Assembly: GCA_030532385.1 (NCBI GenBank)
Contig: JAUNLG010000003.1
Coordinates: forward strand, 48,685 to 112,684
DNA from: Anaerococcus sp.
GTDB lineage: Bacteria > Bacillota > Clostridia > Tissierellales > Peptoniphilaceae
Reading direction: 5' to 3'
DNA length: 64,000 bases
Position 1 is the first letter of the stretch; each line of letters begins with the position of its first letter. The notes under the pieces were generated by a model. It was not told the DNA's origin. It did not search any database and saw only the letters and a list, made by a program, of their open reading frames with translations. Both the position numbers and the translations under genes were made by a program. Of this stretch, positions 58,405-60,808 are shown one piece after another.

Positions 58405-59154
58405 CTAGTAGTACTTTTTGACTTCTACATCCTTACTAATTTGCTCAACTTTTTCTAGGTAAGCTTCTTGTCTTTTTTCCATGATAAGTCTTTGTCCAAC
58501 TTGATCTTTAATGGTCTCATAATCATTTACTTGATTATTTTCTATGTTTTCAAGCTTTATTATATGATAGCCAAATTGAGATTTTACAGGTTCTGATACC
58601 TCACCAATTTCTAGACTATCAAGACCCTCTTGGAATTCTTTGACCATTACTCCCTTTGGGAACTTGCCTAAGGATCCACCATTATCTTTTGAAGGGTCCA
58701 TTGAATACATTTTTGCAGCCTCAGAAAAGTCAAGACCCTTATCGATCTCTGCTTTTATGGATTTTGCCTTTTCCAAATCTTTAATAAGAATATGGCTGGC
58801 TTGGTATAAGACTGGTGGATTTAAAGTATCTTTATGGTCTTCATAATAAGCCTTTATTTCCTTATCATCAATCTTTACTGACTCAAAGATCTTGTGCATG
58901 GCATAGTTTATCATCATATTCCTCTTAACTTTATCAAATTCTTTGAGGAACTCTTCATCCTTATCCAGGCCATTTTCGTAAGCATCTTTTAATAAAAGCT
59001 CTTGGTTTACAATCTCATCAGCTAGTGCTTTTTTTCCTTCTTCGTTGTTTAAACTTTGGTTATTTTCAATATTTGCCAAAAGTTCATAAACATCGCTTAG
59101 ATAAATTTTCTTTTCATTAACTTCTGCTAGAAGTTTATTATTATCTTCTGTCAT
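58405..59154 (-). CDS. Parvulin-type peptidyl-prolyl isomerase, apparently cytoplasmic
   Basis: 249 residues. N-terminal SurA/PrsA-like helical region (about 1-105) and a parvulin domain: YQASHILIKDLEKAKSIK near 116-133, FSEAAKMYSMDPSKDNGGSLG near 143-163, FQEGLDSLEIGEVSEPV and QFGYHIIKLE near 191-200. Unlike PrsA there is no signal peptide or lipobox; the protein starts MTEDNNKLLAEVNEKKIYLS. It is therefore probably a cytoplasmic chaperone-like isomerase. SD AAGGTATAA within the cvfB-like end. Confidence 0.88.
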   Translation of the reverse strand: MTEDNNKLLAEVNEKKIYLSDVYELLANIENNQSLNNEEGKKALADEIVNQELLLKDAYENGLDKDEEFLKEFDKVKRNMMINYAMHKIFESVKIDDKEIKAYYEDHKDTLNPPVLYQASHILIKDLEKAKSIKAEIDKGLDFSEAAKMYSMDPSKDNGGSLGKFPKGVMVKEFQEGLDSLEIGEVSEPVKSQFGYHIIKLENIENNQVNDYETIKDQVGQRLIMEKRQEAYLEKVEQISKDVEVKKYY

Positions 59155-59962
59155 TTATACCTTCCTTTAAAATTATTTTATCATCATATATATTTATATA
59201 TCCATCTTTATATAGCCTACCTATGGCTCTCTTGAAAGCTGACTTGCTTATTGCAAATGTCTTATAAATCTTATCAGGCTTTGACTTATCTGATAGGCCA
59301 AGCTCACCATCATGATCATATAAGTAATCAAGAATTTTATCACTATCAGAATCAATCTCAAGGTAGGCTCTCTGCCTTAAAGATAGGTCTATTTTTCCAT
59401 CATCTTTGACAGCCTTTACCCTTGCTTCTATAAGTTCACCTTCAACATGAACTCCTCTTAATTCTTTAATCCTTAATAATGAATCATACTTATTATCTAT
59501 GGCTACAAAGGCCCCTATAGATTTATTAATAGAATAAATCCTTCCGCTTACTTCATCATTTTCCTCATAGGTATGGTCATTTGATAAAAGATCTCTTATT
59601 TTTGAACTTAAATATACATATCCATCTCTATCCTCTTTAAAGGTTACAGGGTAAGTCATTTCTATTATTATCCTATAAGTTCTCTCTTCAAAGGGCATAA
59701 AGATAGATCTTTTATCTCCTATCTGAAAGTAAACTCCATTTTTATCAATGCTAATAGCCTTAAGGGAGTAGATCATTCCTATTTGATAAGGAAAATCTAG
59801 ACTTGCCCTTAAGATCTTTCCTTGATCGTGGTAAATTATTGCAGGTACCATATCTCCAATTTTTTTACCCTTTAGGTCTTTTTTATCTATTTGTGCATCT
59901 CCAAACTTTGTTTTAAGATAGGCTTTATTTTTACTAAATCTTTTTATTTTAAACTCTTTAAT
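59141..59962 (-). CDS. cvfB: CvfB-like S1 RNA-binding protein, apparent AUU start
   Basis: 273 residues if started at ATT 59960-59962. The frame is open from the yitT stop, and its first 37 codons read naturally (IKEFKIKRFSKNKAYLKTKF...). They contain no ATG, GTG or TTG. AGGAG ends six bases before the ATT, perfect spacing. The first ATG (59849-59851) lacks the N-terminal S1-like strand and has its GGAG only two bases away. S1-like domains fill about 1-190 (ELRGVHVEGELIEARVKAVK near 157-176); a winged helix closes the protein (FAISKSAFKRAIGRLYKDGY near 239). CvfB proteins bind RNA and affect virulence gene expression in Staphylococcus. Confidence 0.82.
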   Translation of the reverse strand: MKEFKIKRFSKNKAYLKTKFGDAQIDKKDLKGKKIGDMVPAIIYHDQGKILRASLDFPYQIGMIYSLKAISIDKNGVYFQIGDKRSIFMPFEERTYRIIIEMTYPVTFKEDRDGYVYLSSKIRDLLSNDHTYEENDEVSGRIYSINKSIGAFVAIDNKYDSLLRIKELRGVHVEGELIEARVKAVKDDGKIDLSLRQRAYLEIDSDSDKILDYLYDHDGELGLSDKSKPDKIYKTFAISKSAFKRAIGRLYKDGYINIYDDKIILKEGINDRR

Positions 59963-59971
59963 AATATTCTC

Positions 59972-60808
59972 CTAATTTTTATCTATTGTAAAGCCCCTAC
60001 CTAAGACTTCAGAAACTTGGTAGTTAAAGATAAAGGCATTTTCATCAATTTTTAGAATCTCTTCTTCCATTATAGGATAGTTCCTTACAGCAGTAACAGT
60101 CATTATTACCTTTTTTTCCTTAAGCGAAAAACCTCCTTCTGCTTGAAGTAAGGTCACTCCCTTATCATACTTCTTAAGAAGCATTTGATTAATTTCTTCA
60201 TACTTATCAGAGATAATATAGATAGCTATTTTTCTTCCAAAACCCTGGATAAAATAATCTATCCCTATAGATTGAATTATAATAGTAAGAGCAGCATAAA
60301 GGGCCAGCTCTATTCCAAAGACTAAAACTGATAAGGATACTACTGTAATATCTGCTATAAACAAGGAGACATGCATGGGTAAATTTGTAAGTTTTTTTAA
60401 AATAGAAGCTATTAGATCTGTTCCGCCTGTTGACCCTCCTTGATAAAATATGATAGAAAGGCCTAGGCTCATTATTATTGCACCAAAAACTAGGTTTATA
60501 ATTTTATCATGGGTTAAAATTACATTTGGAAAAATTTTTTCAAATATTATAAGACATCCTGAAAGACTAAGAGATGCAAAAAGTGATCTTTTTGCAAAAT
60601 CAAAGCCCAAAACTACTATTCCTAAAATTAGGACTAGGATATTAAGGCTAAGGTTTGTCACTCCCACACTAATTTTGGGAAAAATTGTAGCCAATACTAA
60701 AGAAAGTCCAGAAACTCCACCTGCTGCTATATCTTGTTGGATTAGGAAAAAGTATAAACCAATAGCTAGCAAGAAGGTCCCTAGAAAAATCCATAAATAT
60801 TTTTTCAT
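59972..60808 (-). CDS. YitT family membrane protein (DUF161 plus DUF2179)
   Basis: 278 residues. Five or six membrane helices with QQDIAAGGVSGLSLVL near 24-39 and YQGGSTGGTDLIASIL near 122-137, the repeated DUF161 motifs, then the soluble C-terminal DUF2179 domain (GVTLLQAEGGFSLKEKKVIM near 218-237). Transport is often assumed for the family but not proven. ATG at 60806-60808 has GGAGG six bases before it. Its TAG stop is part of the Shine-Dalgarno of the next gene and in the same frame. Confidence 0.9.
   Translation of the reverse strand: MKKYLWIFLGTFLLAIGLYFFLIQQDIAAGGVSGLSLVLATIFPKISVGVTNLSLNILVLILGIVVLGFDFAKRSLFASLSLSGCLIIFEKIFPNVILTHDKIINLVFGAIIMSLGLSIIFYQGGSTGGTDLIASILKKLTNLPMHVSLFIADITVVSLSVLVFGIELALYAALTIIIQSIGIDYFIQGFGRKIAIYIISDKYEEINQMLLKKYDKGVTLLQAEGGFSLKEKKVIMTVTAVRNYPIMEEEILKIDENAFIFNYQVSEVLGRGFTIDKN

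What the first reader, a model, noticed from the sequence alone, without database searches (positions are those of the whole stretch)
59960..59971. CvfB-like gene appears to start with AUU
Seen: from the yitT TAG the frame is open, AGGAG is followed by six bases and ATT, and the next 37 codons read as natural protein without any ATG, GTG, TTG or CTG. The first ATG would remove the start of the first S1-like region and has GGAG only two bases away. Known: AUU starts are rare and best known in infC, where they allow control by initiation factor 3. Inference: this RNA-binding protein may be under similar start-codon control, with coupling to yitT because the stop codon and the Shine-Dalgarno overlap.
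Basis: partly seen in the sequence, partly recalled or inferred. Interest (0 to 1): 0.75.

Follow-up and report, generated by a model that had tools for sequence, protein, structure and literature searches.

The report
Genus-wide AUU-type start of cvfB
In Anaerococcus bacteria the gene for a CvfB-like RNA-binding protein appears to begin with the weak start codons AUU, AUA or AUC instead of AUG in almost every species examined, which suggests that its production is kept low or regulated on purpose.

Summary
The cvfB-like frame (59971-59141, minus strand) opens at the yitT stop, has AGGAG six bases before ATT (59962-59960), and has no ATG/GTG/TTG until codon 37. Pfam's S1_2 match begins at that ATT codon.

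It is not a sequencing error. All 31 Anaerococcus genomes searched have the gene. At the aligned codon 30 of 31 carry ATT (18), ATA (8) or ATC (4), none ATG; one has a displaced frame. GGAG 6-8 nt upstream is invariant. The first downstream canonical codon is scattered (codons 15-100), 0 of 31 with a Shine-Dalgarno-like tetramer 4-10 nt upstream. The N-terminal codons evolve as coding sequence. All 19 outgroup genomes fetched use ATG.

infC reads AUA in 30 of 30 loci held. yitT lies directly upstream in 31 of 31.

Best reading: a conserved weak (AUH) start that limits CvfB synthesis, probably coupled to yitT. Sensitivity to IF3 is inferred, not shown. It is a new member of a known kind (infC, pcnB, ccpN, cvfC1).

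The parts
59960..59962 (-). ATT start codon of the cvfB-like gene
   Evidence: AUH (ATT/ATA/ATC) at the aligned codon in 30 of 31 genus genomes; the S1_2 match begins here
59969..59973 (-). Shine-Dalgarno AGGAG, overlapping the yitT stop
   Evidence: GGAG invariant in 31 of 31 genomes, 6-8 nt from the aligned start codon
59141..59962 (-). cvfB-like gene: N-terminal S1_2, a later S1 domain, CvfB winged helix
   Evidence: Pfam S1_2, S1 and CvfB_WH above cut-off; CvfB_2nd below its cut-off
59972..60808 (-). yitT-family membrane protein gene, same frame, ending in TAG
   Evidence: Pfam YitT_membrane and DUF2179; directly upstream of cvfB in 31 of 31 genomes
59849..59851 (-). first in-frame ATG, rejected as the start
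   Evidence: GGAG only 2 nt away; an ATG at this codon in 2 of 31 genomes
58405..59154 (-). downstream PpiC-type peptidyl-prolyl isomerase gene, its start overlapping the end of cvfB
   Evidence: Pfam Rotamase families; coordinates

Best explanation
The cvfB-like gene is translated from AUU at 59962, as its orthologues across Anaerococcus are from AUU, AUA or AUC. A well-placed GGAG and a weakly structured start region bring the 30S subunit to the site, probably in good part ribosomes that have just finished yitT 9-20 nt upstream. The third-position mismatch with the initiator tRNA makes initiation inefficient, so CvfB is made at a low level that depends on initiation fidelity (IF3) and on yitT translation. 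Comparative evidence supports the start site, the Shine-Dalgarno, the absence of AUG and the yitT arrangement. Low efficiency is inferred from S. aureus reporters; IF3 dependence and coupling are inferred.
For: AUH in 30 of 31 genomes, 0 ATG; GGAG invariant against 1.3% by chance. An in-frame stop lies within 10 codons upstream in 28 of 31, directly before the ATT in two. 0 of 31 first downstream canonical codons have a Shine-Dalgarno-like tetramer 4-10 nt upstream. Codons 1-36 are constrained as coding sequence; S1_2 covers them. Predicted folding is weaker at the start than inside the gene in 31 of 31. Of 348 genes with reciprocal orthologues around cvfB the screen returns cvfB and one tmRNA-overlapping ORF; it recovers infC as a positive control. 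At least 8 changes among ATT/ATA/ATC, none to ATG. AUU/AUA starts gave about 10% of AUG output for S. aureus cvfC1, ccpN and citZ in RPMI (PMC13009471, passages).
Against: No protein or ribosome data from this gene. L028 has no AUH in frame at the site; L025 has TTG one codon before its ATA, 5 nt from GGAG, and may start there; L030 and L050 have GTG three codons before; L020, L022 and L026 have canonical codons in an open frame further upstream. Lack of G at the third base alone is weak: 4 of 20 conserved fourfold columns also lack G. The solved relative 3go5 aligns significantly only over residues 150-256, so it does not by itself support the N-terminus. Stop and Shine-Dalgarno do not overlap in 13 of 31.
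Confidence: 0.8

Rival explanations
1. The AUH start is only a constant dampener: it keeps CvfB low, with no regulation through IF3 or yitT.
For: The codon drifts among AUU/AUA/AUC while infC is fixed at AUA, as if only 'not AUG' matters; no conserved RNA structure. In S. aureus the cvfC1 AUU showed no medium dependence (PMC13009471, passages).
Against: IF3 excludes weak third-base pairs in general (PMC10158994, abstract), so some IF3 sensitivity is hard to avoid; yitT adjacency is conserved in 31 of 31.
Confidence: 0.4
2. Translation starts at the first internal canonical codon (ATG 59851 here), giving a CvfB without the beginning of its first S1 domain.
For: ATG is the usual start; GGAG stands near it, though only 2 nt away.
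Against: The first canonical codon falls at codon 15-100 across 31 genomes, at 60 or later in 14 of 31, and 0 of 31 have a Shine-Dalgarno-like tetramer at 4-10 nt. The upstream codons are under protein constraint.
Confidence: 0.04
3. The region is translated by reading through the yitT TAG, or by frameshifting, as a YitT-CvfB fusion.
For: In the window the two genes share a frame with a single TAG between them.
Against: The spacing varies (gaps of 9, 10, 13, 14, 15 and 20 nt), so the frame relation is not conserved; L023 and L024 have a further TAA directly before the ATT.
Confidence: 0.02

Closest known systems
infC (IF3) with AUU/AUA/AUC start
   Same: AUH start behind a strong Shine-Dalgarno; in these same genomes infC reads AUA (30 of 30 loci held). 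Autoregulation by IF3 is as stated in PMC5472188 (passages).
   Different: cvfB is not an initiation factor, so direct feedback is not expected; its start varies among AUU/AUA/AUC and it lies behind yitT.
S. aureus cvfC1 (AUU) and ccpN (AUA)
   Same: Conserved AUH starts of regulator-type genes in Bacillota (cvfC1's regulatory role is only proposed there), with reporter evidence for low initiation (PMC13009471, passages). CvfC1 is another protein despite the similar name.
   Different: Those have extended Shine-Dalgarno motifs and ribosome-profiling proof; here the motif is GGAG with 6-8 nt spacing and the evidence is comparative only.
E. coli pcnB (AUU)
   Same: Gene of RNA metabolism limited by an AUU start (known to me from recall and from a title in the reference list of PMC13009471).
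   Different: Unrelated protein and operon.
Streptomyces sigR (GTC)
   Same: Non-canonical start repressed by IF3 in a coupled operon (PMC5472188, passages).
   Different: First- and third-base departures from AUG rather than third base only; sigma factor; there canonical replacement and IF3 mutants were tested.

Membership tests
CvfB/YitL family of S1-domain RNA-binding proteins | C-terminal CvfB winged helix | tested here: met
   CvfB_WH, 79.5 bits against a cut-off of 22.9
CvfB/YitL family of S1-domain RNA-binding proteins | N-terminal S1_2 and further S1 domains | tested here: met
   S1_2 at residues 4-58 and S1 at 135-199 above cut-off; CvfB_2nd below its cut-off (22.2 against 27)
Genes with a conserved non-canonical AUH start | No in-frame canonical start compatible with the conserved N-terminus | tested here: met
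   25 of 31 genomes have none between a near upstream in-frame stop and codon 15 or later; 6 of 31 have canonical codons upstream in frame, L025's TTG being the plausible one
Genes with a conserved non-canonical AUH start | AUH codon and Shine-Dalgarno conserved across species | tested here: met
   AUH in 30 of 31, GGAG in 31 of 31
Genes with a conserved non-canonical AUH start | Initiation at the codon shown by proteomics or ribosome profiling | not testable with these tools
   no such data at hand
IF3-controlled genes (infC type) | Output rises when IF3 is low or impaired and falls when it is in excess, dependent on the start codon | not testable with these tools
   needs reporters; infC is present in 31 of 31 genomes
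Translationally coupled gene pairs | Upstream stop close to the downstream start, conserved gene order | tested here: met
   yitT upstream in 31 of 31, gap 9-20 nt; stop overlaps the Shine-Dalgarno in 18 of 31
Translationally coupled gene pairs | Downstream translation depends on upstream translation | not testable with these tools
   needs a two-gene reporter

The most novel reading that the evidence does not exclude
In Anaerococcus, cvfB and infC belong to a small set of AUH-started genes whose translation reads out initiation fidelity (free IF3) in vivo, cvfB doing so through re-initiation after yitT, so that an S1-type RNA-binding regulator is set by the state of the translation machinery. 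Loss of the ancestral AUG start, which sister genera keep, created this link at the base of the genus, and selection has kept AUG out since.
Probability: 0.25. Interest if true: 0.72.

Novelty: new member of a known kind. Interest (0 to 1): 0.55.

Why it matters
Few bacterial genes are known to begin with AUH codons (from recall and PMC13009471, passages), and fewer have support across a whole genus. Finding one in an RNA-binding protein widens the list beyond infC, pcnB, ccpN and cvfC1. It implies that gene finders limited to ATG/GTG/TTG would cut this protein short in most Anaerococcus genomes (inference; public annotations were not checked). It also gives a natural series (AUU, AUA, AUC at one site in 30 species) for asking whether weak starts are kept for regulation or only for low dosage.

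Tried and rejected
Sequencing error: rejected, since 30 of 31 genomes agree. Relatives without the 37-codon extension: rejected, since all 31 have it. TAG readthrough or frameshift fusion: rejected. A conserved RNA element at the start: RNAalifold finds no pair. Selection against AUG judged from the third base alone: weak, because 4 of 20 conserved fourfold columns also lack G. The argument rests instead on canonical starts being the rule: of 63 window genes with at least two reciprocal orthologues 59 share an ATG column, 2 a GTG column and 2 none; for genes with indels that column is not always the true start, and for cvfB itself it is a late internal ATG. Window candidates with late first ATGs that I inspected proved to have ordinary ATG starts. 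The screen also flagged non-coding shadow ORFs: all seven such ORFs of G030 around infC overlap Rfam tRNA or rRNA matches and the one around cvfB overlaps tmRNA; those seen only between G012 and G015 were judged by eye or as orthologues. It flagged too ORFs overlapping an upstream gene with an ordinary ATG (one family read out, one judged by eye). NCBIfam gave two matches, both far below cut-off. Structure prediction was not obtained: the machine was busy. Its alignment A2 held 45 sequences and left out L028, L059, L062, L068 and L069; it supports no claim here. Paper searches: Anaerococcus + AUU + start codon gave 0 papers; YitL + start codon gave 1, on a snail (listing); cvfB + start codon gave 1, where each term occurs once (listing, not read); CvfB + S1 domain and cvfB + RNA-binding gave 1 and 3 (listings).

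Full report
Observation. On the minus strand yitT ends in TAG (59974-59972). AGGAG (59973-59969) overlaps it, six bases follow, then ATT (59962-59960), and the frame stays open to 59141. No ATG, GTG or TTG occurs until ATG 59851, 37 codons in. The window lies in a 1.39 Mb, 82% complete genome. The named loci nearest to the query by protein identity are Anaerococcus, so I call the window's genus Anaerococcus.

The extension is protein. Pfam's S1_2 matches residues 4-58 of the stop-to-stop ORF, that is, from the ATT codon on; an S1 match and the CvfB winged helix follow. In 31 of 31 genus genomes the homologue includes this region. Codons 1-36 are constrained like the rest: pN/pS 0.105 against 0.081 over 11 close pairs that I chose, and 0.33 against 0.31 over all pairs of 30 genomes, where synonymous differences are large. 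Against this, the only solved relative found, 3go5, aligns significantly only over residues 150-256.

The start codon. At the aligned codon the 31 genomes read ATT 18, ATA 8, ATC 4, GAT 1. The GAT case (L028) has its frame displaced by one base among A-rich runs; whether that is an error or real is not known. GGAG is present 6-8 nt upstream in 31 of 31, against 101 of 7750 in-frame codons inside the same genes. In 28 of 31 an in-frame stop lies within 10 codons upstream, in two directly before the ATT, so initiation must occur after it. In 25 of these 28 no canonical codon lies between that stop and the aligned codon (L028 is among the 25). The other three are L025 (TTG at -1, 5 nt from GGAG and so a plausible start, and GTG at -3), L030 and L050 (GTG at -3, overlapping the GGAG). 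In the remaining three genomes (L020, L022, L026) the frame is open further upstream and holds canonical codons before the Shine-Dalgarno. Downstream, the first canonical codon falls anywhere from 15 to 100 and in 0 of 31 has a Shine-Dalgarno-like tetramer at 4-10 nt; the window's ATG position is shared by 2 of 31. Predicted folding is weaker around the start than inside the gene in 31 of 31, as is usual for starts (recalled).

Background. Among genes with reciprocal orthologues in stretches around cvfB from five genomes (348 genes, 543 pairs) the screen for conserved protein upstream of every canonical start returned cvfB, in all 10 genome pairs, and one ORF that overlaps tmRNA. Around infC (four genomes, 251 genes, 249 pairs) it returned infC as a positive control, plus rRNA/tRNA shadow ORFs and ORFs overlapping an upstream gene with ordinary ATG starts. 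infC reads ATA behind GGAGG in 30 of 30 loci held: 29 by one script and L073 by a separate pattern. The 31st genome's infC locus was not held. Some infC frames also hold an in-frame ATG before the Shine-Dalgarno (L071 and L099, for instance), so ATA is inferred there from spacing and conservation.

Evolution. On a tree from the rest of the gene at least 8 changes among ATT, ATA and ATC are needed, and none leads to ATG (L028 treated as unknown). The third base alone is weak evidence for selection against G. Yet an ordinary start would be expected to settle on ATG: 59 of 63 window genes with at least two orthologues share an ATG column, though that column is not always the true start. In the family 125 of 130 genomes have a match. 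I fetched 19 of the 94 matching genomes outside the genus, and all 19 have an in-frame ATG at the N-terminus (one search takes the most upstream ATG by construction, and in L062 and L068 that lies further upstream than the likely start). The sister lineages L051-L053 share yitT upstream but start about seven residues earlier with ATG. So the AUH start looks derived, with a slightly shortened N-terminus.

Neighbourhood. yitT is directly upstream in 31 of 31; the stop-to-start gap is 9 nt in 13, 10 nt in 5 and 13-20 nt in 13, so stop and Shine-Dalgarno overlap in 18. No conserved RNA structure was found.

Mechanism. AUU, AUA and AUC pair with the initiator anticodon at the first two bases and mismatch at the third. 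IF3 tolerates only Watson-Crick pairs at bases one and two and excludes weak third pairs (PMC10158994, abstract). In S. aureus the AUU/AUA starts of cvfC1, ccpN and citZ gave about 10% of AUG output in RPMI medium, ccpN up to 30% in BHI, and cvfC1 no change with medium (PMC13009471, passages). IF3 represses sigR from GTC (PMC5472188, passages). Extra IF3 lowers re-initiation in E. coli, less so with a Shine-Dalgarno (PMC2268962, passages). Hence my odds: start site 0.93; low initiation rate about 0.8; coupling to yitT about 0.6; physiological IF3 control about 0.3. Only the first rests on data from this gene.

Novelty. Conserved AUH starts are a known kind. I found no paper on this one in searches with Anaerococcus/AUU/start codon, YitL/start codon and cvfB/start codon; the library lacks most subscription journals.

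Noticed in passing
L099 (own genome, outside the window) and L070-L098: infC reads ATA behind GGAGG in 30 of 30 loci held from the genus, the same start class as cvfB.
   Followed up: partly
L028, around 1441-1560: One genome (G029) has its cvfB frame displaced by one base near A-rich runs just after the Shine-Dalgarno; error or real is not known.
   Followed up: partly
L025, around 1504: One genome has TTG directly before the ATA, 5 nt from GGAG: a possible shift to a canonical start.
   Followed up: no
window 59154-59141: The PpiC-type isomerase gene begins inside the 3' end of cvfB, so it may also be translationally coupled.
   Followed up: no
window 60930-60880: A terminator-like inverted repeat with a T run lies between the gene at 61848-60934 and yitT; seen by eye only.
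   Followed up: no
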